Shown here: positions 48,734 to 62,786 of the stretch, one piece after another
Layout: every line of letters starts with the position of its first letter
How positions within the stretch are numbered: position 1 is the first letter of the stretch
Assembly: GCF_011046735.1 (NCBI RefSeq)
Contig: NZ_CP049258.1
Span: 6,218,001 to 6,282,000 of the forward strand
Source: Nordella sp. HKS 07
GTDB lineage: Bacteria > Pseudomonadota > Alphaproteobacteria > Rhizobiales > Aestuariivirgaceae
DNA: 64,000 nt
Direction: 5' to 3'
The notes under the pieces: generated by a model
Told to the model about the DNA's origin: nothing
The model's input: only the letters and a program-made list of their open reading frames with translations
Databases searched by the model: none
Program-made: the position numbers and the translations under genes

Positions 48734-49084
48734 TTTAGCCAAATAAATTCATACTATTAGAGCGCTGCAACAAACGGTTCCTATCAGGATGCGTGGTCAG
48801 GGTAACGTCAGCATCGGGGAAAGGCGCGCCGCCTAAGTGTCGGCGGACCTTTATGCGGCGGTGCGTCAGCAAGCCGTTCCGGCTTTGCACCGGCAGCTAC
48901 AAATTGCGCCATCGACGGCGACACCATCGAATGCCGGGGTGTGCGAGGGCGAGAATGGCCCAGCAAAGTTTGCGTGCGGAGTATCCCCGCCTGCGGTGGC
49001 GCAATCTCCTCCCCCGAAAAATGTTAGACCGGAAGTAACATCTACTGTCACCGATGCGTACAAATGCGAAGAGGCTCTGTTACG
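48734..49084. other. Non-coding or decayed region after tRNA-Thr
   Basis: Overlapping short open frames (48793-49038 and 48837-49112) have no recognisable domain and no good ribosome-binding site. The place directly behind a tRNA 3' end is a common integration site, but no integrase, and no repeat of the tRNA end, was seen in the window. It may be remnant coding sequence. Confidence 0.4.
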
Positions 49085-49855
49085 ATGTCCCGCACTCGCA
49101 GAAGCTTGTTGACTATGATAGCTGCCACGGCTGCGGCAGGCTTTCTCGCCAAGCAATCAGAGCTTGCTGCAAATCTTCCGCAATCGATCAGAGCGGTGGC
49201 ATTTGACGGTTTTGCCATTCTCGATCCGCGCCCCGCCCTTGCCCAAGCCAAGCGGCTGCATCCGCAGGCTGGAGATGCGTTCTTGAGCCTGTTTCAAGCG
49301 CGCATGTTCGAATATCAGTGGCTCCGAGTACTTGGCGCACACTATAAGGATTTCCTGTCCATTGTTGACGATGCTCATGTGTTTGCCGCCGAGCAAACCG
49401 GCGATCGAGTGAGTGAAGAAGCGCGTGGGCGGTTGAGATGTGCTTTCTTGAACCTCAAAGCCTGGCCTGATTCCGCCGAGTCTCTGAAGAAGCTCAAGGC
49501 AAGAAGCCTTCGCCTCGGTTTGCTGTCGAACATGACGGCTGACATGCTCAATACTGGCTTAGCGAATTCAGGCCTCCAGCGTGTCTTTGAGCACGTGCTG
49601 AGTACCGACGCGATCAAATCTTACAAGCCGGATCCCAGGGCCTATCAGCTCGGGGTTAATAGCTTCGGGCTTGCAAAGGAACAGATCGCTTTTGTGGCCT
49701 CCGCGGGATGGGACGGGGCAGGTGCCGCGTGGTTTGGCTATCCAACGTTTTGGGTCAATCGGCTGGGTGGAACACCTGAACGCCTTGACGGTGAGATAAT
49801 AGCCATAGGTCGAGATCTTGCTGCTCTCGATCAATTGATACTTGAGCACGGCTGA
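49085..49855 (+). CDS. Exported HAD-superfamily (haloacid dehalogenase type II-like) protein
   Basis: 256 residues from ATG 49085. The N terminus MSRTRRSLLTMIAATAAAGF has paired arginines and a hydrophobic stretch, so it looks like a Tat-type signal; export to the periplasm is inferred. The HAD core follows: AVAFDGFAILD around residue 41 (nucleophile Asp kept, but the usual YGT is FAI), LLSNMTADML, lysine in IKSYKPDPRAYQL and VASAGWDGAGAAWFGYPTFW for motif IV, which matches dehalogenase type II proteins. Base composition seems less GC-rich than the neighbours, and the gene is close to tRNA-Thr, which could indicate transfer. Activity unproven. Confidence 0.82.
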   Translation: MSRTRRSLLTMIAATAAAGFLAKQSELAANLPQSIRAVAFDGFAILDPRPALAQAKRLHPQAGDAFLSLFQARMFEYQWLRVLGAHYKDFLSIVDDAHVFAAEQTGDRVSEEARGRLRCAFLNLKAWPDSAESLKKLKARSLRLGLLSNMTADMLNTGLANSGLQRVFEHVLSTDAIKSYKPDPRAYQLGVNSFGLAKEQIAFVASAGWDGAGAAWFGYPTFWVNRLGGTPERLDGEIIAIGRDLAALDQLILEHG

Positions 49856-50108: not shown

Positions 50109-52133
50109 CTAGAACCATGGATCGCGCTCATCGCCCACGCCCATTCTGGCCGGGTGCCGGTTCAGAAACGCATCCGTGTAGCGCCCTTCAGGAGTCTTGA
50201 CTAATCGAACGACTGCATGTTCATCTTCTCCGGCTTCAAGCGATGCTGGACCGTCCAAACCTAAAAGCTCAAAGACTTTGACCTTGCTGGTCCGTCCCTT
50301 GACGGGTGCCGCGCCGTGCGAGCGCGTAACAATCGCGGGACCGGCGAGCTTGCGGGTCTCATCGCTCATCAGGATCTCGGCATCGAGCTCCTTGCCCAGC
50401 GCCTCGAGGCGGCTTGCGACATTCACTACATCGCCAATGGCCGTATAGCTCAGGCGTTCGACGGATCCGACATTGCCGACAAGGGCGATTCCGCTATTGA
50501 TGCCAATGCGCACGAATTGTCCACTCATTCGACCATCCGGGCGCGCCAGTTGGCGCATGGCCTGGCGTATCGTTTCAGCCGCACGGCAGGCACTCAAGGC
50601 ATGATCCTCATTCGCTGCCGGCGCGTTCCAGATGCCCATTATGCAGTCGCCAATGAACTTGTCGACGATGCCTCCTTCCCGATGAATGGCCTTGGTCGCC
50701 AGAGTTAGAAATTCGGTCAGGAACGGTGCGACGTCGGGACCATAATCCTCCGTAAGCTGGGTAAAGCCAGGAAGGTCAGCGAACATGACAGTGATCTCGC
50801 GCAATTCGCCGCCAGGCTTGGGCTCGACCCCGTGCTGGATGAGGCTGCGCACGATATCACTCGGGACATAGAGGCGGAAAGCATTCAAGCTGCCGGCCAT
50901 CCGATGCAGAGCGTTCGACAGACTGTCGAGCTCGAATAGCCGCGTCGCGACATGCCTGACATTGGAAAGCGCGAAACTCTCGATATGCTTGAGTTCGCCC
51001 GCCACTTGTTGGATCGGCCTGGCGACAGAGTAGTGCGCAAACAGGGCGGCGAGCCCTGCGGTCAGCGCGGCGAAGAGCATGAGCGTCACGAGAAGGCGGC
51101 GCGTATTGCGATCGATCTCCGCGGTGAAGGCGGCTCGCGGTATCGCTGTAACGAGCGCCCAGCCGTTAAAGTTCAATGGCGTCCTGGTCCCATAGAACAC
51201 AGTTCCGTCGTCACTCGTGACCATGCCTTCCGGCGACTTCATGGCATTTGCCCGATTGAGCGCGGTGATGATCTGCGATTTGTCGCTTGGTTCCAGCAGG
51301 GATGCTGATTTCATTTTTGGCACCGACGAGGCAACGACCGTGCCGGTTTCGCTGACGATGACCGCCGCACCCTTTTGCGCCACATCCAGCTGCCCCAGAA
51401 AATCAGCCAGGCGATGCAGATTGAGTGAGACCATGATTACACCCTGGAAGCGGTTGTGCAGATCGAAGCGCGTCGCCGCCACGGCCGCCGGTTCGAAGCC
51501 GCTCGGCAGGACGTCAACCATGGTCCACGTCACCCCCTGTCCGCCAACGGCGCCGCGATACCATTTGCTGCCGAGCGTCACATAAGCCGACTCGCCCTTG
51601 CTGCGCTCTTCGAAGAATATGTCCTCAGGGATGGACCTGTATCTGTCACGGCGCAGGCTGCGCCTGCCATTGGCGAGGGGCGCGCCGATTTCGACCATTT
51701 CGATCTTGTTGTCGATCAGTATGTGCGAGCCAAAGAACCGACCATCGGGAAAGCCGAAGCCGATCCAGGACACGGATGGCAGCGAGCGCAGGACCGACAG
51801 GAAGACGAATTCGCGCTTGGCCTCGTCCTCGGCGCTGATGGCGCCCTGGAAAAGGATGGACCGGATGACCTCGACCGCCCCTTCCGAGGCCCGGAACGTA
51901 GTCTCGAGCTCCTTTTTCACGACACCCGCCGTCTGGACATTGATCGAGCCGACGATCGTCTCGACATTCCGGCTCGCCGTGCGCATCCAGGAGATGTGCA
52001 CGACGAGCGCGGTCGCTAGAACCGCGATGAGCACCAGCCCGGTGAGGGCTGTGCCGATTCGTACTTTGAGGCGCGGTATGACGTCAGTTTTCGCCGCCTG
52101 TGATGAGGCGGACGCCGCGGTTGAATGAGACAT
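50109..52133 (-). CDS. Membrane-bound class III adenylate/guanylate cyclase with extracytoplasmic sensor domain
   Basis: Signal-transduction cyclase of 674 residues from ATG 52133. One membrane helix at about 31-47, a large periplasmic Cache-like region (about 48-345), a second helix at about 347-370, a HAMP-like linker and a C-terminal cyclase domain. Both metal aspartates are visible (Asp452 in FADLPGFTQL and Asp496 in KFIGDCIMG), as are Lys492 and NVASRLEAL, so it should be active. It is the last gene of the bufferin-type operon: its start lies 50 bases inside the 3' end of ndh, in another frame. The stimulus is unknown; the context suggests metal or redox stress. An ATG ten codons earlier (52163) is also open. 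Confidence 0.9.
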   Translation of the reverse strand: MSHSTAASASSQAAKTDVIPRLKVRIGTALTGLVLIAVLATALVVHISWMRTASRNVETIVGSINVQTAGVVKKELETTFRASEGAVEVIRSILFQGAISAEDEAKREFVFLSVLRSLPSVSWIGFGFPDGRFFGSHILIDNKIEMVEIGAPLANGRRSLRRDRYRSIPEDIFFEERSKGESAYVTLGSKWYRGAVGGQGVTWTMVDVLPSGFEPAAVAATRFDLHNRFQGVIMVSLNLHRLADFLGQLDVAQKGAAVIVSETGTVVASSVPKMKSASLLEPSDKSQIITALNRANAMKSPEGMVTSDDGTVFYGTRTPLNFNGWALVTAIPRAAFTAEIDRNTRRLLVTLMLFAALTAGLAALFAHYSVARPIQQVAGELKHIESFALSNVRHVATRLFELDSLSNALHRMAGSLNAFRLYVPSDIVRSLIQHGVEPKPGGELREITVMFADLPGFTQLTEDYGPDVAPFLTEFLTLATKAIHREGGIVDKFIGDCIMGIWNAPAANEDHALSACRAAETIRQAMRQLARPDGRMSGQFVRIGINSGIALVGNVGSVERLSYTAIGDVVNVASRLEALGKELDAEILMSDETRKLAGPAIVTRSHGAAPVKGRTSKVKVFELLGLDGPASLEAGEDEHAVVRLVKTPEGRYTDAFLNRHPARMGVGDERDPWF

Positions 52134-53370
52134 AGGCCACGATCCAATCAAGAAAAACGACAAGACGGTTGCGAAAGCCGATCAGGAACCAGATATGGGC
52201 GAAGCACCAGATCAGCCAGGCGGGGAAGCCGGAGAGTGTGAAGCCGCCAAAGTCCGCAACAGCCGAGCTTCGGCCGAACGTCGCCAGATTCCCATAGTTG
52301 CGATATTTGAACTTGCGGCGCGGACTGCCTTTGAGATCGCCCAGGATCGATCCCGCCGCGAAATACCCCATCTGCTTGGCGGCCGGCGCTATGCCCGGAA
52401 CAGTAATGCCATTTACATCCGTCACAATCGCCGTATCTCCGATGACGAATGTATTGTCGGAGCCCGGCAAACGAAGCGTGGCGTCGACGACGACCCGCCC
52501 AGCGCGGTCGCATTGGGCCTCGAGCCACTTTCCGGCTGGTGACGCCATGACCCCAGCCGCCCAGATGATCGTTGCCGTCTCTATGCGCCGGCCATCCCTG
52601 AGGGTTATGCCGTCGTTGCCGCAGTCTGTGACGGCGGCCTCGGTCATGACCGTGACACCCAATCGGGACAGCTGTCTGGCCGCCGATTCCGATAGCTTGT
52701 CGGGAAAGGCGGGAAGAATCCGGCTTCCGGCCTCGACGAGAATGATCTGTGTCTGCGTCGGATTAATATGACGGAAATCATGTACGATGGTGCGATGCGC
52801 GAGCTCGGCAATGGCACCGGCCATCTCCACACCGGTTGGTCCGCCACCCACGACGACGAAGGTCAAGGACCGTCGGCGCTCGTTCTCATCGACCGTCGCC
52901 TCGGCTTGTTCGAAGGCGAGAAGGATGCGCCGGCGAATTTCCGTCGCTTCGTCGATCTTCTTGAGGCCCGGCGCGAATTCCTCCCACTGCTCATGGCCGA
53001 AATAGGCGTGTCGGGCGCCGGTGGCGACGATCAGGTAGTCGAAATGTATGCGGCGCTTGGATGTCACCACCTCGCTAGCGGATTTATCGATTGCGACTAT
53101 CTTGTCCATGAGCACGGTAACGTTCTTCTGCCGCGAGACGATGCGCCTGATCGGCGATGCAATCTGGGCCGGGGACAGGCCGGCGGTGGCGACCTGGTAA
53201 AGCAATGGCTGGAACAGGTGATAGTTGCGCCGATCGATCAGCGTGATATCGACCGGCGCATGGCGAAGCGCCGTGGCGGCCGAGAGGCCGCCAAAGCCCG
53301 CGCCCAGAATGACCACCTGTGGGCGGGCCAGTGCTTGTCCGGCTCGCTTGTCTGCGGGAAATTCGTCCAA
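52084..53370 (-). CDS. Type II NADH:quinone oxidoreductase-like FAD protein (NDH-2)
   Basis: Non-proton-pumping respiratory flavoprotein, 428 residues. FAD-binding GAGFGGLS at about 23-30 with NYHLFQPLLYQVATAGLSP, a second Rossmann motif VVVGGGPTGVEMAG, and the C-terminal FAD contact VIGDTA...VPGIAPAAKQMGYFAA. The hydrophobic C terminus (FPAWLIWCFAHIWFLIGFRN) resembles the membrane anchor of NDH-2. The start is TTG 53370 with AGGTGAG just before it; no better start lies before the FAD motif. It follows the DoxX gene by seven bases, so it belongs to the same transcript as the bufferin genes. Confidence 0.92.
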   Translation of the reverse strand: MDEFPADKRAGQALARPQVVILGAGFGGLSAATALRHAPVDITLIDRRNYHLFQPLLYQVATAGLSPAQIASPIRRIVSRQKNVTVLMDKIVAIDKSASEVVTSKRRIHFDYLIVATGARHAYFGHEQWEEFAPGLKKIDEATEIRRRILLAFEQAEATVDENERRRSLTFVVVGGGPTGVEMAGAIAELAHRTIVHDFRHINPTQTQIILVEAGSRILPAFPDKLSESAARQLSRLGVTVMTEAAVTDCGNDGITLRDGRRIETATIIWAAGVMASPAGKWLEAQCDRAGRVVVDATLRLPGSDNTFVIGDTAIVTDVNGITVPGIAPAAKQMGYFAAGSILGDLKGSPRRKFKYRNYGNLATFGRSSAVADFGGFTLSGFPAWLIWCFAHIWFLIGFRNRLVVFLDWIVAYVSFNRGVRLITGGEN

Positions 53371-53377
53371 GGCTCAC

Positions 53378-53851
53378 CTATTGCCCAAAAATCAGCCGTC
53401 GGCCCAGCTGGTCGAGCGACACGATACCAGCACCACGCGCAAGAAGGAGACCGAGCAAACTTGCCCACATGAGATGCTCGCCCCAATGCCCAGGATAGAC
53501 GAATATCTGAATCACTGCGACCAGGCCGAGAAGCGCCAGCGCGCCGAGACGTGTGAACAGGCCGAGAAAAATCAGTACCGAGCCGGTCAATTCGGTGGCG
53601 GTCGCCAAGGGTGCCGCGATATCCGGCGGCAGCAGCGGCACGCGATATTCCATCGCGAAGAGTTGCAGCGTCACAGGCCAACTGACCAATTTCGATTGCG
53701 CCGAATTCCAGAATACATTGGCAATGGCGACCCGCGCGGCGAGCTGAATGACCGACATCGGTATGGCATCGGCGACTGCCACGGCTTTCCTGAAGGCGCC
53801 GGTCAACGAAAAAATCGATTTGTCCGTATCCGGCAAAGAGAGATTCATCAT
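53378..53851 (-). CDS. DoxX family membrane protein (bufferin operon partner)
   Basis: 157 residues, four predicted membrane helices (for example VIQLAARVAIANVFWNSAQS, ATELTGSVLIFLGLFTRLGA, LALLGLVAVIQIFVYPGHWG). The DoxX family pattern is clear. In the gig/buf operon of Caulobacter, known from the literature, a DoxX protein is the fourth gene after DUF2282, DUF692 and DUF2063, as here. Its start overlaps the DUF2063 stop (ATGA). Its role is not established; DoxX proteins are linked to redox and thiol stress. Confidence 0.9.
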   Translation of the reverse strand: MMNLSLPDTDKSIFSLTGAFRKAVAVADAIPMSVIQLAARVAIANVFWNSAQSKLVSWPVTLQLFAMEYRVPLLPPDIAAPLATATELTGSVLIFLGLFTRLGALALLGLVAVIQIFVYPGHWGEHLMWASLLGLLLARGAGIVSLDQLGRRLIFGQ

Positions 53852-54609
53852 GATACTTGTCCTTTCAATGGCTTGTGCGCATCAGCGCGGATCACAAGCT
53901 GGTTGCGCAAAAGGAAGAGGATTTCACCCGTGAGGTCGAAGCCAGAGTCGCGTGCAAGCGCCCGGGCCGCCGCCGTTTCGATGCAGCGGCACCGGACAAG
54001 GCTACGCCAGAAGGCAAATCTCGCAGGCGTGAGCTCGAAAAACCTGATGTCATCATCATGACGGATAGTCGCAATGCGGGTGGTCCGGCGCGGCAAAGTC
54101 TGCGGAGTTTCGCTCCGATGCGCCCAAAGGCCGAGGAGCGGCCAGCGCGAGACAACGAGGCGGAGGCTTGGCTGGAGATCGAGCGTCGAGGTCTCGGCCA
54201 TTTCCGCAATTTTGAGGAAAGGCAGTTGCGTACTGATCAGGGTGCTGTGAATCGCCCATTCGAGGGAAGCCATCTCGGCGAGGATCGGCGCATGCCGACA
54301 GGCCGGAAAGCGAGACAGGAATTGCGGAAAGCGGTCGCCATAGGTGGCAAGACGCGCCTGGCGTGGCGGCGCGCGCAAAATGAACTGATGTGCCGCATAG
54401 GCGAAGAAACGCTCATCGCCGAGCCTTGCGGTGACTGGAAAGACCGTCCGCAAATGGGCCGTGAGCGACAGGACCATGTTGTTGCGATAGATCGCATAAC
54501 GGCGCGCAGGGTCGGCGTGCGCGGCGGTGAATTCGCTTTGGATATCGACGGAGCTGCCGTCGAGAAGGGCCTGCGTCATGGATGCCTGCAGTTGTGCAAG
54601 ACTACGCAT
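53848..54609 (-). CDS. bufC: DUF2063 protein, MNIO partner (BufC/HvfC type)
   Basis: 253 residues. N-terminal DUF2063 domain: RRYAIYRNNMVLSLTAHLRT, VFPVTARLGDERFFAYAAHQ and FILRAPP, about residues 36-90. The C-terminal half resembles the winged-helix-like RRE region of such partners. This protein presents the precursor peptide to the DUF692 enzyme in characterised systems. It overlaps the DUF692 gene by eight bases and the DoxX gene by four, so the three are translationally coupled. Confidence 0.9.
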   Translation of the reverse strand: MRSLAQLQASMTQALLDGSSVDIQSEFTAAHADPARRYAIYRNNMVLSLTAHLRTVFPVTARLGDERFFAYAAHQFILRAPPRQARLATYGDRFPQFLSRFPACRHAPILAEMASLEWAIHSTLISTQLPFLKIAEMAETSTLDLQPSLRLVVSRWPLLGLWAHRSETPQTLPRRTTRIATIRHDDDIRFFELTPARFAFWRSLVRCRCIETAAARALARDSGFDLTGEILFLLRNQLVIRADAHKPLKGQVS

Positions 54610-55564
54610 GGGCGAGCTCCAGCGGTTGGTAGGTCCGGCTCGGGTGATGATCGCATATGCCCACCTTCGCTATCTTCGACCGGCTTGGCGGCAAGAATGG
54701 GAGAACCGAAGGCTTGGCGTTCGCGACAGTTTCGGCGAGGAGATCGGCCCACATGGCTTCACCAAGCAGCGTAGCGAGTGGCGGGATATCCGAATCCCAT
54801 TCAATGAGCGTTGGGCGCGTCCCGATACGCTCCAGCGCGAAGCGATAGAGCGACCATACCGCCGGAGCCACGGCAGAACCGTGATTGTCGATCAGGACCG
54901 GTCCGTCGGGCGTGTCATTCGTTGCATGGCCGGCAAGATGGATCTCCTCGATGCTATCGCCCGGCAGGCGGGCGATGTAGGCTTGCGCATCAAAACCGAG
55001 ATTTCGCGCAGAAATATGGACATTGTTGATATCGAGCAGAAGGCCGCAACCGGTGCGCCTGGCGATCTCGCTGAGAAATTCAGGCTCTGCCATTGTCGAG
55101 CGCGCAAAGCCGATATAGGCAGACAGGTTTTCGATCAGAATGCGCCGACCGATCACCTCTTGCGTCTGATCGATATTGCGGCAGACGATAGCGAGCGCTT
55201 CCTCGTCATGAGGCAGCGGCATGAGGTCGTTCAGATAGATGCCGTCACCGACGCACCAGGCAAGATGCTCAGAGACCATTGCCGGCTGGAAGCGGTCGCA
55301 CACCGACTTGAGGCGCGCGAGATGGGCGGTATCGACGCCCTGCGCCGAACCCAGCGACAGACCAACGCCATGGATCGACAAGGTATAGTGCCGGCACAGC
55401 TGTTCGAGCGCCGCCGTGGCGGGGCTCGGATGCATGTAGTTTTCGGCATGGACCTCAAGCCAGCCCGCGGACGGTCGCTGCTTCAGTATTTGCGGCATAT
55501 GGGGGCCGCGCAAGCCGATGCCGGCGACGGGAGGCAGGGGAGAACGGAGGGGTTTCGTCGGCAT
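54602..55564 (-). CDS. bufB: DUF692 multinuclear non-heme iron oxidase (MNIO), bufferin maturase
   Basis: 320 residues from ATG 55564 (AAAGGG upstream; a longer frame to 55630 is not conserved). TIM-barrel DUF692 family of MbnB, TglH and BufB. Visible conserved residues: GLRGPHMPQIL, WLEVHAENYM, SIHGVGLSLG, VSEHLAW, LIENLSAY, LLLDINNVHIS, IHLAGHA and LIDNHGSAV, which carry the His, Glu, Asp and Asn ligands of the iron centre. In characterised bufferins the enzyme converts cysteines of BufA into thiooxazoles that bind copper. It lies 78 bases downstream of the precursor gene. No residues appear to be missing. Confidence 0.93.
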   Translation of the reverse strand: MPTKPLRSPLPPVAGIGLRGPHMPQILKQRPSAGWLEVHAENYMHPSPATAALEQLCRHYTLSIHGVGLSLGSAQGVDTAHLARLKSVCDRFQPAMVSEHLAWCVGDGIYLNDLMPLPHDEEALAIVCRNIDQTQEVIGRRILIENLSAYIGFARSTMAEPEFLSEIARRTGCGLLLDINNVHISARNLGFDAQAYIARLPGDSIEEIHLAGHATNDTPDGPVLIDNHGSAVAPAVWSLYRFALERIGTRPTLIEWDSDIPPLATLLGEAMWADLLAETVANAKPSVLPFLPPSRSKIAKVGICDHHPSRTYQPLELAHA

Positions 55565-55642
55565 GTCAGGACCCTTTCGTTGAACTGGCTTGAGATCTGC
55601 GAACGCGTGATCCGGTTTCCGGCGGAACACGCGCCAAGCAAA

Positions 55643-55912
55643 TTAGGATTTGGGTTCGTTGCTGCCACCGGTCAGCTTGGCGCAGCTTCCGGCGGGGAGG
55701 TAAATCCAGGCGTCGCCCTGGTTGTCGGCGCTCGCGGTCCCGGCGCAGGAATGCGTCGCCGTCTGGCAATCATTCGTTCCGGCCTTCGACACGCCGTAGC
55801 ATTTCTCGAATTGATAATCGGGTTGCGGTGCCGGACCGGCAAAGGCGCCGCTGGCCGCGAGCGTGGTGATCGCCGCGAGCGCCGAACCGACGAGAAACTT
55901 GGTATTGATCAT
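55643..55912 (-). CDS. bufA1: Bufferin-type metallophore precursor (DUF2282, BufA1)
   Basis: Small exported precursor peptide of 89 residues. Start at ATG 55912, four bases after GGAGAG. Signal peptide INTKFLVGSALAAITTLAAS with cleavage near GAFA-GPAP. The mature part has the DUF2282 pattern with four cysteines at 38, 49, 56 and 77 (EKCYGV, TNDCQT, HSCAGT, AGSCAK), matching the four-Cys bufferin 1 core in which two cysteines become thiooxazoles. First gene of the operon bufA1-bufB-bufC-DoxX-NDH-2-cyclase. Copper buffering in the periplasm is the known role of the family; whether it is copper here is inference. Confidence 0.92.
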   Translation of the reverse strand: MINTKFLVGSALAAITTLAASGAFAGPAPQPDYQFEKCYGVSKAGTNDCQTATHSCAGTASADNQGDAWIYLPAGSCAKLTGGSNEPKS

Positions 55913-56186
55913 TGGACTCTCCATTGGGAATGTTGATTTCGCACGGCTGCGATGGCCGATCGCCAAGGAGTTTCTGCCAATCGCGCGGCGAACTGAAATG
56001 CCGTATCAGCATGATAACGATAGCGCCGTTCTATGATCGCCCGCTGTCGCCTATCTATCTCTGTGTTCTCGCGTGCGGCGCGCTGACGAGAAGATGGCCG
56101 TTCAGTAAAGAGAAAGGCCGCTCTCCTTTTAGGGGAACGGCCTGAGGTGCAGCCGAGAGGGGAAGCGGGACGGCCGCGCGGGGAAG

Positions 56187-57262
56187 TCACAAATAGACAC
56201 CATGGATATCGATGGTCGATTGGTGTCCGATCTGGTCATATTTGTCGGCGAGCCACGAAGAGGCGCGCTCGCGCCCCGCGTCGCGCAGATCGGTCAAGAA
56301 CTCCCAATCGGCGTTAAGCTTGCTGGCGACGCCCAGGCCCAGCATGATGTCGTCGGCCGATATCGCGTGAATATGCATGCGCTTGAGATCGCGGGTCGGG
56401 CAAGCGCCATTGTCGATGAGCTTGCTGACGAAATCGATTGCCCGCATTTCACGCATCAGCGACGAATTGAAGCTGATCTCATTGATCCGGTTCATGATCT
56501 CAGTCGCCGTGCGCGGCAGCTCCGGCCTTGACATCGGGTTGATATGGACGACCAGGACGTCCGGCGACTCGCAGCCATAGATCAGCGGAAAGATCGCGGG
56601 ATTGCCCATATAGCCGCCGTCCCAATAGGCGTCCTCGCCGATCTCGACGGCACGGAACAGGAAAGGCAGACAGGCCGAGGCCATGACCGCATCGCAGGTG
56701 ATGTCGTCATTGTCGAACACCTTGACCTTGCCGGTACGCACATTGGTGGCACAGATGTTGAGTTTGAGCTTGCAGCGGGCTGAACGCAGCGCCTCAAAGT
56801 CCATCGACTGCTCGAGAATGCGGCGCAGCGGATTGATATCAAGCGGGTTGAACTGGTAGGGCGACATCAGCCGCGTCACCAGATCGAACAGGACGTAGGG
56901 TGGCGAGTTCTCGAGCGACCGGTTGCGAGTGAGGCGGTCGAGCGGCGTGGGCTGAATCGGCGAGAAGGCCGCAGCATGGCTTACCCGGCGCCAGAAATTG
57001 GCGAGCGCCTTCTGCGCGCCTTCGCGCCCGCCCTCGACCAGCCCATATGTCATGACCGCCGCATTCATGGCGCCGGCACTGGTCGCCACCACACCTTCGA
57101 AATCAAGCTTGGGCTCTTCGAGCAAGCGGTCCAGTACGCCCCAGGTGAAAGCGCCATGGGCACCGCCCCCTGCAAAGCGAGATTGAGTGTCTTGGTCGCT
57201 GAGCCTGAAGCTGTCCTTCGCCTTGCATGAGGTCGGGTCGTGGGGATGCTTGAGTGGTCCAT
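56187..57262 (-). pseudogene. Patatin-like phospholipase family protein, frameshifted in this sequence
   Basis: The gene starts at ATG 57262 (GGGAGAG five bases upstream) with MDHSSIPTTRPHARRRTASG and TKTLNLALQG. The frame then breaks: the run of five C at 57166-57170 lacks one base, so the oxyanion loop GGGAHGAFTWGVLDRLLEEP appears in another frame, which continues intact to 56187. With one base added the protein is about 358 residues and has the patatin GGGxxG loop, nucleophile Ser in VVATSAGAMNA and the Asp of DGGYMGNP. The homopolymer position suggests sequencing error rather than decay. It follows bdhA by 13 bases. Patatin homologues next to bdhA are recurrent in alphaproteobacteria and suggest a lipid or polyhydroxybutyrate role (inference). 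Confidence 0.82.
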
Positions 57263-57275
57263 TGTGTCTCTCCCT

Positions 57276-58103
57276 TCAATGCGCGGTCCAACCGCCGTCG
57301 ACAGGTATGGCCGCACCGGTAATCGAGCTTCCGCCATCGCTGCACAGAAAAACCGTGAGCGCGCCGATCTCTTCGACCGAGGCAAATCGCTTGTTTGGCT
57401 GGTTCTTCAGAAGGACGTCGCGAATAACTGCTTCGCGCGGAATTTTATGCGACTTTGCCTGGTCATCGATCTGCCGTTCGACGAGCGGGGTCCAAACATA
57501 GCCCGGACAGATGGCATTGCTTGTCACTCCCGCATCCGCTCCTTCGAGGGCGACTACCTTGGTGAAGCCGACGATGCCGTGCTTGGCGGCGACATAAGCC
57601 GATTTAAACGGCGAGGCGATGAGGCCATGTGCCGACGATATATTGACGATGCGACCGAAGTTGCGGGCCTTCATCCCTTCGAAGATGGCACGCACAAGAT
57701 GGAAGGCCGAGGACAGGTTGATGGCGAGGATCTGGTCCCACTTCTCGGGAGGAAAGGACTCGACCGGGGCCACGTGCTGGATGCCGGCATTGTTGATCAC
57801 TATGTCGATTTGACCGAAGCGGCGTGTGCCCTGCTCCGCCATGGAACGGATAGCGTCGGCTTGCGACATGTCGGCATCGCTATAAGCGACATCCACATCG
57901 TGCGCTTCCGCCAGCGACCGGCGCTGCATTTCGATGTCATCACGATGCCCGAACCCGTTGAGCATGACGGCACTGCCGGCTTCGGCCAGCGCTTTGGCGA
58001 TGCCAAGGCCAATGCCGCTGGTCGAACCCGTGACGATAGCGGCGCGCCCCTCGAGCGGACGGCGTGACGATTGCATATCCATTTTTCTATTCAAGACCAG
58101 CAT
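57276..58103 (-). CDS. bdhA: 3-hydroxybutyrate dehydrogenase
   Basis: NAD-dependent SDR enzyme interconverting 3-hydroxybutyrate and acetoacetate in polyhydroxybutyrate and ketone-body use, 275 residues. Start ATG 58103 with GGAG six bases before it. Motifs: TGSTSGIGLGIAKALAEAGS, INNAGIQHVAPVESFP, NISSAHGLIASPFKSAYVAA and catalytic Tyr/Lys in YVAAKHG, then CPGYVWTPLVERQIDDQAK. These, especially the QIDDQAK and HVAPVE stretches, match BdhA. Divergent from a LysR gene, and followed by the patatin gene in the same operon. Confidence 0.93.
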   Translation of the reverse strand: MLVLNRKMDMQSSRRPLEGRAAIVTGSTSGIGLGIAKALAEAGSAVMLNGFGHRDDIEMQRRSLAEAHDVDVAYSDADMSQADAIRSMAEQGTRRFGQIDIVINNAGIQHVAPVESFPPEKWDQILAINLSSAFHLVRAIFEGMKARNFGRIVNISSAHGLIASPFKSAYVAAKHGIVGFTKVVALEGADAGVTSNAICPGYVWTPLVERQIDDQAKSHKIPREAVIRDVLLKNQPNKRFASVEEIGALTVFLCSDGGSSITGAAIPVDGGWTAH

Positions 58104-58240
58104 TTCAATCTCCGACTTCCGGCGTTTTGTGGTCCTGAGCTTGAACAAAACGGCCGGCCATCGGAAATGCCGAGCGGCTATTATTTCCATGTCGAGCGTG
58201 CATTGGCGGCCGGGCGCCACCTTGGCTACGGTCCTAAGCC

Positions 58241-59141
58241 ATGGATCTACATCACATTCGCTATTTTCTCGCCGTCTGCGAGACGCTTAATTTCACTCGC
58301 GCCGCGGAGGCCTGCAATGTCACCCAACCGGCCCTCAGCCGCGCTGTCCAACAGCTTGAGGAGGAAATCGGCGGGCAACTGTTTCGCCGCGAACGCAATT
58401 TTACCCATCTAACCGACCTGGGGATGCTGATGCGCCCACGCCTGCAACAGATCCTTGAGACGGTGGGCGAGGTAAAACGCGAGGTCCGGCAGTTTCTCAC
58501 TCTCGAAAATGCGCAGATCAGACTTGGCATCATGTGCACCGTGGGTCCGACCCGATTTACAGGTCTGCTGGCCGATTTCCGCATGCGCTATCCCGGTGTC
58601 TCACTGGAGCTCATCGAAGGTATGCCGGCGGCGCTTGCGTGTAAGCTCGAACGTGGCGAGATCGACATAGCAGTAATGGCATCGGCCGACGGTTATCCCG
58701 AGCGTCTCGACCTCGAACTACTCTATCGCGAGCGCTTCCTCCTCGCCTGCCCCCCCCGGCCATCGCTTTACCCACATGAAGGCGGTGCGCATGCCGGAAG
58801 TTAATGGTGAGAACTATCTGCTTCGTCTCAATTGCGAGTATCAGAACAATATCGACGATCTCATTCGCCAATCGGGGGGCGACGTCAATGTCTGTTACCA
58901 GAGTGAACGGGAGGATTGGATCCAGAACATGGTGGCGGGCGGCCTCGGCATCTGTTTCATCCCCGAATTCAGCGCCGTGATCCCCGGCCTCGAATTGCGC
59001 CCCGTAATCGAGCCCGACGTATGGCGCGAGATCAATCTGGTCATCATGTCCGGCCGGCGCATGTCACCTGCACTGATGAGCTTCATCAAGGCGGTTCGCG
59101 AGTATCCCTGGCCGGCGAGCCGTTTCGATCTAGCGGTCTAA
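58241..59141 (+). pseudogene. LysR family regulator, frameshifted in this sequence
   Basis: The N-terminal part (helix-turn-helix NFTRAAEACNVTQPALSRAV and the first half of the effector domain, to about residue 172) is in one frame. The C-terminal part (LNCEYQNNIDDLIRQSGGDV to the end) is in another. The break lies in the C-run at 58750-58757, where one C too many replaces CPPGHRFTHMKAV with CPPRPSLY. With it removed the gene encodes about 299 residues. It is divergent from bdhA and is probably its regulator. A close paralogue starts 146 bases downstream. Either a sequencing error or a recent inactivation. Confidence 0.85.
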
Positions 59142-60474: not shown

Positions 60475-60951
60475 ATGAAACTTAATCTGACCGTAAGCAT
60501 CGGTATTGCTGCTTTGGCATTTGCCACGGCGGCCAATTTCGCTCAGGCCGGGGAATGCCCGTCCGGCAAGATGAAGGATAACGCCGTAACTTCGGGCGAA
60601 ATGATGCCCAAGAAGGTAACCGACCAGGTTTTGGCATCGATCGACCTCACACCCAAGGGCGAAGCCTTCAAGGGCGAAACGCTACGCCTGCGCAAGCTTG
60701 TCATCCAGCCGGGTGGCGTCGTGCCCTGGCATGATCACAAGACCCGCCCCGCCAATATCTATGTCGTGTCGGGAACAGTGACCGAATATCGGAGCACTTG
60801 CGAGGTGCCTATCATTCACAAGGCCGGCGACACCGTCGCCGAGTTCGGTGACAAGCTGGCCCATTGGTGGAAGAACACCGGCAACAAGCCAGCCGTCCTG
60901 ATCTCCGCCGACATCTTCCACAGCGCCGATATGGATGCTCATATGATGTGA
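60475..60951 (+). CDS. Periplasmic cupin-domain protein
   Basis: 158 residues from ATG 60475 (GGAGA six bases upstream). Signal peptide KLNLTVSIGIAALAFATAAN ending ...FAQA. The double-stranded beta-helix has LVIQPGGVVPWHDHKTRPAN (His86, His88) with NIYVVSGTVTEYRS and a second motif PIIHKAGDTVAEFGDKLAHW, so a metal site is likely. Ends with a His/Met-containing tail (DIFHSADMDAHMM) that could bind metal. Function unknown. It is 98 bases upstream of the MFS gene on the same strand. Confidence 0.85.
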   Translation: MKLNLTVSIGIAALAFATAANFAQAGECPSGKMKDNAVTSGEMMPKKVTDQVLASIDLTPKGEAFKGETLRLRKLVIQPGGVVPWHDHKTRPANIYVVSGTVTEYRSTCEVPIIHKAGDTVAEFGDKLAHWWKNTGNKPAVLISADIFHSADMDAHMM

Positions 60952-61048: not shown

Positions 61049-62245
61049 ATGACAAGCGCCGTCGAGACCGCGCCGCGCATCGCTGCGCCGCCTGTTGCCA
61101 GGCTGATCGCCATTGGCGTCATCAGCTTTCTCACCTTGGTAGATCTCTTTGCGACACAAGCCATCCTACCCTCTCTCGCCGCTGCTTATCGCGTATCGCC
61201 GGGCCTCATGGGATCGGCCGTCAATCTGTGCACCATGGGCATGGCGATCTCGGGCCTTGGCGTCGCTCTGCTCAACCATCGAATCGGACGGCGTAAGGGC
61301 GTCGTCTTGAGTCTCGCCTTGTTGACCTTCCCCACCTTGCTCCTGGCGACGATGCCGACGCTCCCATGGTTCGCCGCCCTGCGCCTCGCGCAGGGCGTTT
61401 TCATGTCAGCCGCTTTCAGCCTGACGATCACCTACATAGCTGAAACTGCGAGTCCGCATCTCATATCGGCAGCTCTTGCCGCCTATGTTACCGGAAATGT
61501 CGCGAGCAACCTCTTCGGCCGGCTGATGTCGGCTGCCATCGCCGATCATTTGGGCCTTTCCGCGAACTTTCTGATCTTCGCCGGACTGAATCTCGCCGGT
61601 GCTACCTTGGCCTTTGTCCTGCTGAGCGGCGAGGCGATGTACCGGACTGGAACCACACAGGCAAATATTCTCGTCCTCTTCCGCCGACGCTCGCTGAATG
61701 CCACCTTCGCTATCGGCTTTCTCATCCTTTTCGTGTTCATCGGCACATTCACCTATGTGAACTTCCTGCTCACCAGACCGCCTCTCGACCTTTCGGCGAT
61801 GCAACTTGGTTTCGTCTATCTCATTTTCATCCCCTCGGTCATCATCACGCCGTTTGCCGGTTTTGCCAGCACCAGGCTGGGTGCCGGAACGGTCATCATC
61901 CTGTCGCTGCTGGTTGCCCTCCTGGGTTTGACTGCGTCACTTGTCCCCAATTTGACCTTCGTTCTCGGCGCGATGGCACTCCTTGCAGCCGGCACGTTCT
62001 TCGCCCAGGCGGCCGCGACCGGCTATGTCAGCCGCAGCGCTGGCGCGGCGCGCGGCTCGGCGGGTGGTGTCTACCTCGCTTCTTATTATTCAGGCGGGCT
62101 CGTCGGCAGTATTGTGATCGGGCAAGTGTTCGATCATTTCGGTTGGACGGCGGCCGTTATCGTCCTTGGCGCGGCACTCACCGCCGCATGTCTCTTGGCG
62201 GCTTTCATGACGGAAAACGATAGCGCGCCCGCATCGCAACGATAG
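61049..62245 (+). CDS. MFS transporter (YnfM-like efflux family)
   Basis: 398 residues from ATG 61049, 12 predicted membrane helices. VDLFATQAILPSLAAAYRVS near the N terminus and HRIGRRKGVVLSLALL for the MFS loop motif, RLAQGVFMSAAFSLTITYI and a second half without unusual insertions. Similar proteins export sugars, drugs or organic anions; no substrate can be inferred. An upstream reading to 61001 is possible but has no better ribosome-binding site. It lies between the cupin and DUF302 genes. Confidence 0.88.
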   Translation: MTSAVETAPRIAAPPVARLIAIGVISFLTLVDLFATQAILPSLAAAYRVSPGLMGSAVNLCTMGMAISGLGVALLNHRIGRRKGVVLSLALLTFPTLLLATMPTLPWFAALRLAQGVFMSAAFSLTITYIAETASPHLISAALAAYVTGNVASNLFGRLMSAAIADHLGLSANFLIFAGLNLAGATLAFVLLSGEAMYRTGTTQANILVLFRRRSLNATFAIGFLILFVFIGTFTYVNFLLTRPPLDLSAMQLGFVYLIFIPSVIITPFAGFASTRLGAGTVIILSLLVALLGLTASLVPNLTFVLGAMALLAAGTFFAQAAATGYVSRSAGAARGSAGGVYLASYYSGGLVGSIVIGQVFDHFGWTAAVIVLGAALTAACLLAAFMTENDSAPASQR

Positions 62246-62324
62246 CGAGACGGCATTTCAACGGACAGAGACCATTTGCGATGGTGAGGATCAAACCCGC
62301 GTAACTCAAAACAGGAGATCAAAA

Positions 62325-62786
62325 ATGTTGAATCGCCGCAGCCTCGCCGTCGCACTGGCGATATCCGCCCTTATTCCCATCCCAGCCCAGGCTGCGCAGA
62401 ATGGCATCGTCGAAGGGAAAAGCGCCTATTCCATGAGCGAGACCATCGACCGCCTTAAGAAGGATGTCGCCGCCAAGGGCATCACATTCTTCGCCGAGAT
62501 CGATCAGACGAAGCTGGCAGCCGATGCCGGAATCAAGCTTGGACCCTCAACGCTGCTGATCTTCGGCAATCCGGCGCTCGGTTCCCAGTTCATGACGTCA
62601 AACCCGCAAGCTGGCATCGATTGGCCGGTACGCCTGCTCGTCATCGAGGACAAGAACGGCCAAGTTTGGACGATCTACAACGACTTCGGCTACATCGCCC
62701 GACGGCATCATATCAGCAATCGCGCTGCTGCCTTCAAGATGGCCTCCGAAGTCATCGCATCTATCACATCGTCGGTCAAGAAATAG
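62325..62786 (+). CDS. Exported DUF302 domain protein
   Basis: 153 residues with AGGAG seven bases before the ATG. Signal peptide LNRRSLAVALAISALIPIPA then AQAAQ. The DUF302 pattern follows: YSMSETIDRLKKDVAAKGIT, FFAEIDQTKLAADAGI, LGPSTLLIFGNPALGSQFM, DWPVRLLVIEDKNGQVWTIY. Function of the family is unknown; such proteins are often found with metal or redox genes. Its last 11 bases overlap the convergent LysR gene. Confidence 0.9.
   Translation: MLNRRSLAVALAISALIPIPAQAAQNGIVEGKSAYSMSETIDRLKKDVAAKGITFFAEIDQTKLAADAGIKLGPSTLLIFGNPALGSQFMTSNPQAGIDWPVRLLVIEDKNGQVWTIYNDFGYIARRHHISNRAAAFKMASEVIASITSSVKK

What the first reader, a model, noticed from the sequence alone, without database searches (positions are those of the whole stretch)
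50109..55912. Bufferin-type RiPP operon fused to NDH-2 and a receptor cyclase
Six minus-strand genes read as one unit: DUF2282 precursor (four Cys, signal peptide), DUF692 MNIO, DUF2063, DoxX, NDH-2 and a membrane class III cyclase. The junctions are tight: 8-base overlap, 4-base overlap, 7-base gap and 50-base overlap. The first four genes match the known gig/buf copper-buffering operon. The addition of a respiratory NADH dehydrogenase and a sensor cyclase is the unusual part: metal buffering may be coupled to electron flow (protecting or replacing complex I under copper stress) and to cAMP signalling.
Basis: partly seen in the sequence, partly recalled or inferred. Interest (0 to 1): 0.75.

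Follow-up and report, generated by a model that had tools for sequence, protein, structure and literature searches.

The report
Bufferin operon with NDH-2 and cyclase
A bacterium carries, in one tightly packed gene row, the genes for a metal-trapping modified peptide, a respiratory NADH dehydrogenase and a membrane sensor of the kind that makes cyclic AMP; the same row recurs in rhizobia and a similar set in a distant phylum, which hints that metal buffering, respiration and signalling work together.

Summary
Six minus-strand genes (55912 to 50109) encode a four-Cys DUF2282 precursor, MNIO, DUF2063 partner, DoxX, NDH-2 and a dCache adenylate cyclase, with the stated junctions. Of 19 loci of this BufB clade found by BufB, 10 have bufABC-doxX-ndh2-cyc in this order and 9, a nested Mesorhizobium clade, lack ndh2 and cyc; six more, found by the cyclase, have the full order. 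In Rokubacteria 9 of 10 loci found with bufA have a cyclase beside bufA or doxX, and three an adjoining NDH-2 with a cyclic-nucleotide-binding domain. In 10 of 14 genomes of the order the cyclase lies in or near a bufferin cluster.

New here: no sigF/NrsF genes nearby; a LysR-box-like element precedes bufA in 25 of 25 loci and recurs at the LysR/3-hydroxybutyrate-dehydrogenase promoter; 3 of 4 genome-wide matches are in this locus.

Not shown: copper response, cAMP production, replacement of complex I (which the genome has, with a second NDH-2). A 2017 paper noted a similar gene mix in Legionella in passing. New variant of a known kind.

The parts
55643..55912 (-). bufA: DUF2282 (Buf1) precursor, 89 aa, hydrophobic N-terminal stretch reading as a signal peptide, four Cys
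   Evidence: (PF10048 81.9 bits, cut-off 22.4); four Cys in 37 of the 38 rows listed, the window included, and five in L062; L150 departs from my strict motif in neighbouring residues
54602..55564 (-). bufB: MNIO (DUF692) bufferin maturase
   Evidence: NF050167 366 bits, cut-off 310
53848..54609 (-). bufC: DUF2063 partner protein
   Evidence: PF09836 69.8 bits, cut-off 27.2
53378..53851 (-). doxX: DoxX membrane protein
   Evidence: PF07681 58.7 bits, cut-off 23.6
52084..53370 (-). ndh2: type II NADH:quinone oxidoreductase, 428 aa, TTG start
   Evidence: Pyr_redox_2 174 bits; NDH2_C 30 bits, cut-off 27.7; best solved match 9mqy, 362 bits
50109..52133 (-). cyc: membrane class III cyclase with dCache sensor; adenylyl-type residues K492 and T564 kept
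55995..56021 (-). LysR-box-like element (ATGC-N7-GCAT core; 82 bases between it and the bufA ATG), proposed operator of the operon
   Evidence: found upstream of bufA in 25 of 25 clade A and B loci
58164..58190 (-). same element (ATAG-N7-GCAT) between LysR and 3-hydroxybutyrate dehydrogenase
62233..62259 (+). same element (ATAG-N7-GCAT) upstream of the DUF302 gene
   Evidence: of the clade loci scanned, also in L044 only
57276..58103 (-). 3-hydroxybutyrate dehydrogenase (SDR), conserved neighbour upstream
   Evidence: TIGR01963 366 bits, cut-off 307
56187..57125 (-). patatin-like protein, conserved neighbour; reading frame broken near its 5' end
58241..59141 (+). LysR-type regulator copy 1, divergent from SDR; read in two overlapping frames (58241-58804 and 58776-59141)
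   Evidence: intact 315 aa homologue in L044
59351..60220 (+). LysR-type regulator copy 2
   Evidence: LysR_substrate, HTH_1
60475..60951 (+). cupin-domain protein
61049..62245 (+). MFS transporter
62325..62786 (+). DUF302 protein

Best explanation
It is a LysR-associated bufferin operon of which NDH-2 and a receptor adenylate cyclase are true, long-conserved members. Most likely working: a LysR-type regulator of the cluster binds the dyad before bufA and switches on the operon together with the 3-hydroxybutyrate dehydrogenase-patatin unit (inferred from the element). BufA is modified by BufB-BufC and exported to bind periplasmic copper or a similar soft metal (known for this family, not tested here). 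DoxX and NDH-2 act together at the membrane quinone pool: NDH-2 oxidises NADH and reduces quinone without Fe-S clusters, so electron flow goes on, and reduced quinone is on hand, while metal or electrophile damages Fe-S enzymes (inferred). The dCache cyclase reads a periplasmic signal (metal, bufferin state or a small ligand) and makes cAMP (active-site residues shown; activity inferred), so that the rest of the cell, and in Rokubacteria perhaps the NDH-2 itself through its cyclic-nucleotide-binding domain, follows the state of the periplasm.
For: Full gene order in 16 loci, window included: 10 of the 19 clade loci that BufB found, and all 6 loci fetched from the Rhizobium/Sinorhizobium plasmid and G187 cyclase hits. 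BufB and NDH-2 trees share the main branches: window family, Mesorhizobium, Rhizobium, Ensifer (the place of L062 differs). Cyclase in or near bufferin clusters in 10 of 14 genomes of a 397-genome order search, of Buf1 and of Buf2 type. Rokubacteria: cyclase beside bufA or doxX in 9 of 10 loci; NDH-2 with cNMP-binding domain adjoining in 3, Pfam-confirmed in 3 of 3, with the residues of the phosphate-binding cassette in place (the motif is recalled). Other quinone-reductase-like flavoproteins stand near doxX elsewhere: a flavodoxin-fold NAD(P)H oxidoreductase after doxX in 5 of 9 clade-B loci (Pfam on one), an FMN reductase as well as NDH-2 in Microvirga (Pfam on one). Shared element before bufA, at LysR/SDR and before DUF302; 3 of 4 genome-wide matches in this locus.
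Against: No expression or chemical data. Nine clade-B loci keep bufABC-doxX without ndh2 and cyc, so the core works without them. The window NDH-2 has no cNMP-binding domain. Of 26 Rokubacterial NDH-2 matches 22 were looked at, some with only 1.5 kb of flank: 4 are by the buf-type cyclase, 1 by another cyclase, 17 by neither. Unlinked NDH-2 copies persist in G001 and G003, which lack the locus. Rokubacterial cyclases have Glu where the window has the adenine-selecting Lys, so their product may not be cAMP. The element was defined from the bufA and SDR sites, so in this genome only the DUF302 site is an independent hit. No regulator has been shown to bind it.
Confidence: 0.62

Rival explanations
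1. The locus is mainly a quinone or electrophile (redox-cycling) stress island under a LysR regulator; the bufferin is one of its tools, and copper is not the inducer.
For: No sigF/NrsF hit in any of the 25 clade A and B loci, against 26 of the 77 scorable loci of the scan. DoxX keeps company with different quinone-reductase-like proteins in different clades: NDH-2, a KefF/MdaB-like flavodoxin, FMN reductase. In Microvirga the looser element sits before the FMN reductase-doxX-ndh2 unit in 2 of 3 loci.
Against: Four-Cys bufferin and MNIO are intact, which points to a soft metal; the cyclase family is beside a 'copper chaperone' PpoB2 gene in one genome without a bufferin cluster in the fetched stretch; a second NDH-2 in the genome lies by a multicopper oxidase and a metal-dependent repressor.
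Confidence: 0.3
2. NDH-2 and the cyclase are passengers: they read through from the buf promoter but serve general respiration and cAMP signalling with no functional tie to metal buffering.
For: Clade B and most of the other bufferin loci of the scan lack them; unlinked NDH-2 copies exist in G000, G001, G003; 31 cyclase-domain matches in the genome.
Against: The order is kept in 16 loci over divergence to about 46-50% identity in the cyclase; the cyclase also recurs in other arrangements (divergent from bufA, or with Buf2 clusters) and a cyclase with another sensor stands by bufA in a distant phylum.
Confidence: 0.15
3. Alternative respiratory route: under copper stress NDH-2 takes over from complex I.
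For: NDH-2 has no Fe-S clusters (general knowledge) and is co-encoded with a bufferin of a copper-binding family.
Against: Complex I is encoded and another NDH-2 of 76% identity is present; nothing here measures electron flow.
Confidence: 0.25

Closest known systems
Buf1 bufferin clusters (sigF-nrsF-bufABCD of Caulobacter; gig operon of Cupriavidus and Legionella)
   Same: Same four core genes and order, four-Cys DUF2282 precursor, BufB over the bufferin-maturase cut-off. Seen: passages of PMC3511200; outline, one section and passages of PMC12452194.
   Different: No sigF/NrsF near the locus; LysR-box-like element instead; ndh2 and cyc follow doxX. PMC12452194 says extra conserved genes occur in 'extremely low proportions' (section 14); its main text has no occurrence of NADH, oxidoreductase, LysR or Bradyrhizobium, and 'cyclase' only in the reference list. 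Its supplements were not seen.
Legionella pneumophila H4 cluster lpg0671-lpg0676 (PMC5413113, one section and passages seen)
   Same: Four gig/buf homologues together with an NADH dehydrogenase and an adenylate cyclase; the paper mentions this in passing.
   Different: There the NADH dehydrogenase is one larger protein sharing the DoxX domain, an acetoacetate decarboxylase is present, and genes lie on both strands; the section proposes no function for it. I did not see its sequence.
Rokubacterial bufA-doxX-cyclase(-NDH-2-cNMP) loci found here
   Same: Related BufA (67-68% identity over 63-66 residues), DoxX, cyclase and, in three loci, NDH-2.
   Different: HAMP cyclase (HAMP tested in L117 and L145) with another periplasmic part and Glu in place of Lys at the base-selecting site; NDH-2 with a cyclic-nucleotide-binding domain; an ECF sigma gene in L117 and a similar one in L068.
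Type II NADH dehydrogenase
   Same: Pyr_redox_2 and NDH2_C; nearest solved relative 9mqy.
   Different: Nothing seen in the sequence; only the setting is unusual.

Membership tests
Buf1 bufferin cluster | DUF2282 precursor with four Cys | tested here: met
Buf1 bufferin cluster | MNIO enzyme of the BufB type beside the precursor | tested here: met
   NF050167 366 bits against cut-off 310
Buf1 bufferin cluster | DUF2063 partner and DoxX gene | tested here: met
   both over Pfam cut-offs. NCBIfam HvfC and HvfX models matched below their cut-offs
Buf1 bufferin cluster | central Cys turned into thiooxazoles, copper binding | not testable with these tools
   needs mass spectrometry and metal binding
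sigF/NrsF-controlled bufferin regulon | sigF and nrsF genes next to the cluster | tested here: not met
   no hit between window 46000 and 64000; sigF/NrsF-like genes are at the genome's second buf locus L046. Genes elsewhere in the genome were not searched for
type II NADH dehydrogenase | two-dinucleotide-binding fold with NDH-2 C-terminal domain | tested here: met
class III adenylate cyclase | two metal Asp, transition-state Asn/Arg, Lys and Thr/Asp for adenine | tested here: met
class III adenylate cyclase | makes cAMP | not testable with these tools
   enzyme assay needed
LysR-type regulon | 15-base interrupted dyad (T-N11-A) before the target genes | tested here: met
   the rule itself is recalled
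LysR-type regulon | regulator binds and controls the promoter | not testable with these tools
   binding and expression assays needed

The most novel reading that the evidence does not exclude
A bufferin-linked cyclic-nucleotide circuit: a periplasmic metal or bufferin state is read by a receptor cyclase whose product sets the activity or supply of a non-pumping NADH dehydrogenase, so that metal load directly tunes electron entry into the respiratory chain. The NDH-2-cNMP proteins beside cyclase and bufA in Rokubacteria would be the direct form of it, the alphaproteobacterial operon an indirect form under LysR control.
Probability: 0.3. Interest if true: 0.82.

Novelty: new variant of a known kind. 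Interest (0 to 1): 0.62.

Why it matters
Bufferins are a recently described, widespread class of metal-binding modified peptides whose sensing and wider physiology are little known. A conserved cyclase and NDH-2 in the operon, with a parallel in another phylum where NDH-2 bears a cyclic-nucleotide-binding domain, gives concrete and testable partners: it would be a route by which periplasmic metal stress speaks to respiration and to second-messenger signalling. It also points to a LysR regulator as a control other than sigma F.

Tried and rejected
Chance neighbourhood: rejected, the six-gene order stands in 16 loci. Co-transcription of bufA with the upstream patatin gene: thought less likely, since there are 274 bases between them, a G+C-rich stretch followed by T runs recurs there in many relatives and the element lies just before bufA; the consensus promoter and terminator scan gave no more hits than shuffles, so no terminator is claimed. 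A sigF-type control: genes absent near the locus. NDH-2 as sulfide-quinone reductase: rejected by NDH2_C and the solved matches. The 30% 'ndh2' hits about 9 kb upstream in clade-B loci fall on a very long branch far outside the clade-A NDH-2 (three rows in the tree) and were not counted as NDH-2 of this kind. In one search my overlap filter hid ndh2 in L049-L051; one search showed it. The NDH-2-cNMP protein as proof of linkage to bufferins: rejected in that strong form, because 17 of the 22 Rokubacterial matches looked at are by no cyclase, and a Rhodobacter plasmid homologue is also unlinked (L234). Literature searches for the gene combination; PMC5413113 is the only paper in which I saw an NADH dehydrogenase and a cyclase named together with gig/buf genes; most listed papers were seen as listings only. 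PMC9020721 was looked at by passages and set aside as unrelated. Fold of the cyclase: one model (mean pLDDT 79); Foldseek and VIA-align rows are filled by the catalytic domain, so the fold of the sensor part was not tested by structure, and rests on Pfam dCache_1.

Three to four more scan loci have an ndh2-like hit nine genes from bufB, outside my window of eight. Of the 17 Rhizobium and Sinorhizobium plasmid records I fetched 5, of the 3 Ruegeria records 2. One clade-B locus, L060, has an ECF-sigma-like hit (49.6 bits) about 3.7 kb beyond doxX.
Full report
1. The observation. bufA to bufB has a 78-base gap from an ATG start, or 12 from a GTG. Pfam assigns DUF2282, MNIO, DUF2063, DoxX, NDH-2 and a dCache-class III cyclase, all over cut-off, and NCBIfam places bufB above its cut-off for bufferin maturases. 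The precursor has four Cys, as have 37 of the 38 rows listed, itself included (L062 has a fifth; L150 departs from my strict motif in neighbouring residues).

2. Surroundings. Upstream on the same strand lie a patatin-like gene and a 3-hydroxybutyrate dehydrogenase (TIGR01963, over cut-off), and divergent from these two LysR genes, a cupin, an MFS transporter and a DUF302 protein. The set from DUF302 to cyc keeps its order in the relatives that reach so far, except L206, where the dehydrogenase-patatin pair is on the other side of the LysR gene. The genome (7.18 Mb, one contig) has a second buf locus with tandem bufA and sigF/NrsF-like genes but no ndh2 or window-type cyclase in the 19 kb looked at, a second NDH-2 of 76% identity at another site, 31 cyclase-domain matches and complex I.

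3. Conservation. By BufB I found 19 loci of this clade (window, G002, G009; 16). Ten have bufABC-doxX-ndh2-cyc (call these A): window, L044, L045, L049-L053, L056, L062. Nine do not (B, all Mesorhizobium: L054, L055, L057-L061, L063, L069): bufABC-doxX only, and in five of the nine a flavodoxin-fold NAD(P)H oxidoreductase after doxX. Through the cyclase I found six more A loci: five Rhizobium/Sinorhizobium plasmid loci, all five that I fetched of 17 such records (L166-L169, L171), and L206 from G187. One search confirms the full order in all 16 A loci. Since A is defined by this gene content, the fair figure is 10 of 19 by BufB. In a tree of 92 BufB proteins A and B (15 and 9 rows; L206 not included) form one clade (100/99) and B is nested in A, so ndh2 and cyc were most simply lost in B. 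The NDH-2 tree repeats the main branches, and the unlinked NDH-2 copies of G000, G001 and G003 nest inside the clade-A NDH-2 next to the window. Of the 77 scorable loci of the genome scan, NDH-2 lies within eight genes of bufB in 10 (7 clade A, 3 Microvirga) and a Rokubacterial one in 1 more, the window-type cyclase in 7, a Rokubacterial cyclase in 2, and sigF or NrsF within four genes in 26.

5. Another phylum. With the bufA of a Rokubacterial locus I searched 95 genomes of that phylum: 10 have a match at E 1e-12. In 9 of the 10 loci a cyclase like that of L117 is next to bufA or doxX (all but L150); in L148 and L149 the order is bufABC-doxX-cyclase, as in the window without ndh2. In L152 bufA is only a partial match. 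In three loci (L117, L145, L152) NDH-2 adjoins these genes, and all three NDH-2 proteins carry a C-terminal cyclic-nucleotide-binding domain with the cassette residues in place. A fourth, G104, probably has the same arrangement across a contig break (98.2% over 798 bases at the two contig ends). Against an over-strong reading: one search lists 26 NDH-2 matches in 22 of 94 genomes, 22 of them spanning the cNMP domain; I looked at 22 of the 26, many with only 1.5 kb of flank: 4 are by this cyclase (G104 counted), 1 by another cyclase, 17 by neither. The Rokubacterial cyclases have Glu in place of the base-selecting Lys, so the nucleotide may be cGMP or another.

6. Control. Alignment of the region before bufA shows one strongly kept block of about 30 bases with the core ATGC-N7-GCAT, the form of a LysR-type operator. 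The looser pattern AT-N7-ATRS-N7-GCATT occurs before bufA in 25 of 25 clade A and B loci and in the LysR/dehydrogenase or LysR/patatin gap of all 24 that contain it (for the alignment; in L062 the site lies in that gap though my script named no gene for it). In the whole genome the stricter pattern has 4 matches, 3 of them here: before bufA, before the dehydrogenase, and before DUF302; the reversed control pattern has none. Two of these three sites were used to write the pattern, so only the DUF302 site is an independent success; of the clade loci it is otherwise only in L044. Two of three Microvirga loci have one loose match, before FMN reductase-doxX-ndh2. No sigF or NrsF hit lies in any of the 25 loci; L060 has one ECF-like hit some 3.7 kb beyond doxX.

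7. Mechanism. Shown: gene content, order, conservation, active-site residues, element. Following from known families: bufferin modification and export, metal binding (PMC12452194 and PMC13097082, passages), NDH-2 chemistry. Inferred: LysR control, the DoxX/NDH-2 partnership at the quinone pool, a periplasmic signal for the cyclase, and any tie between cyclic nucleotide and NDH-2 in the alphaproteobacteria. Replacement of complex I is not supported beyond plausibility.

8. Known or new. The four-gene core is known. The 2025 survey of MNIO clusters calls further conserved genes extremely rare and does not name NDH-2 or a cyclase in its main text (supplements not seen). A 2017 Legionella paper notes in one paragraph a cluster with gig homologues, a DoxX-bearing NADH dehydrogenase, an adenylate cyclase and an acetoacetate decarboxylase; that section gives no interpretation. 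That makes the combination older than this report, and adds a third lineage with ketone-body-related chemistry nearby, as here (3-hydroxybutyrate dehydrogenase), which may be chance. I saw no report of the conservation, the cNMP-domain NDH-2, the cyclase family spanning Buf1 and Buf2 clusters or the LysR element in the searches listed under Tried and rejected.

Noticed in passing
window 57065-57385 and 58241-59141: The patatin gene near its 5' end and the first LysR gene each read through two frames, while L044 has longer unbroken homologues; assembly errors or decay. Left as they are.
   Followed up: partly
L048 (own genome 778000-794000): The unlinked NDH-2 copy lies near a multicopper oxidase, a ZIP-like gene (below the Pfam cut-off) and a DtxR-like repressor; genes that I read by eye as GST, amidase and pirin there also lie downstream of the buf locus in G002 (L044), as if the locus had once stood there.
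   Followed up: partly
L046: Second buf locus of the genome: two tandem bufA genes, bufBC, doxX and divergent sigF/NrsF-like genes.
   Followed up: partly
L186, L187, L190, L191: Rokubacterial NDH-2-cNMP genes outside buf loci, here next to other cNMP-domain proteins and once to another cyclase: a wider cyclic-nucleotide-linked NDH-2 family.
   Followed up: partly
L232 (Rhodanobacter denitrificans plasmid): bufABC genes inside a mercury-resistance (mer) operon.
   Followed up: no
L044 12732-13592: A Lactamase_B_2 metallohydrolase gene follows cyc in G002; in 11 of the 16 clade-A loci a DUF3307 gene follows instead.
   Followed up: no
L233 (Azospirillum brasilense plasmid): A LysR gene is divergent from bufABC-doxX with no sigF/NrsF annotated in the stretch: perhaps another LysR-controlled bufferin cluster.
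   Followed up: no
window 49064-49855: Type II haloacid dehalogenase (TIGR01428 over cut-off) convergent with cyc; not part of the unit.
   Followed up: partly
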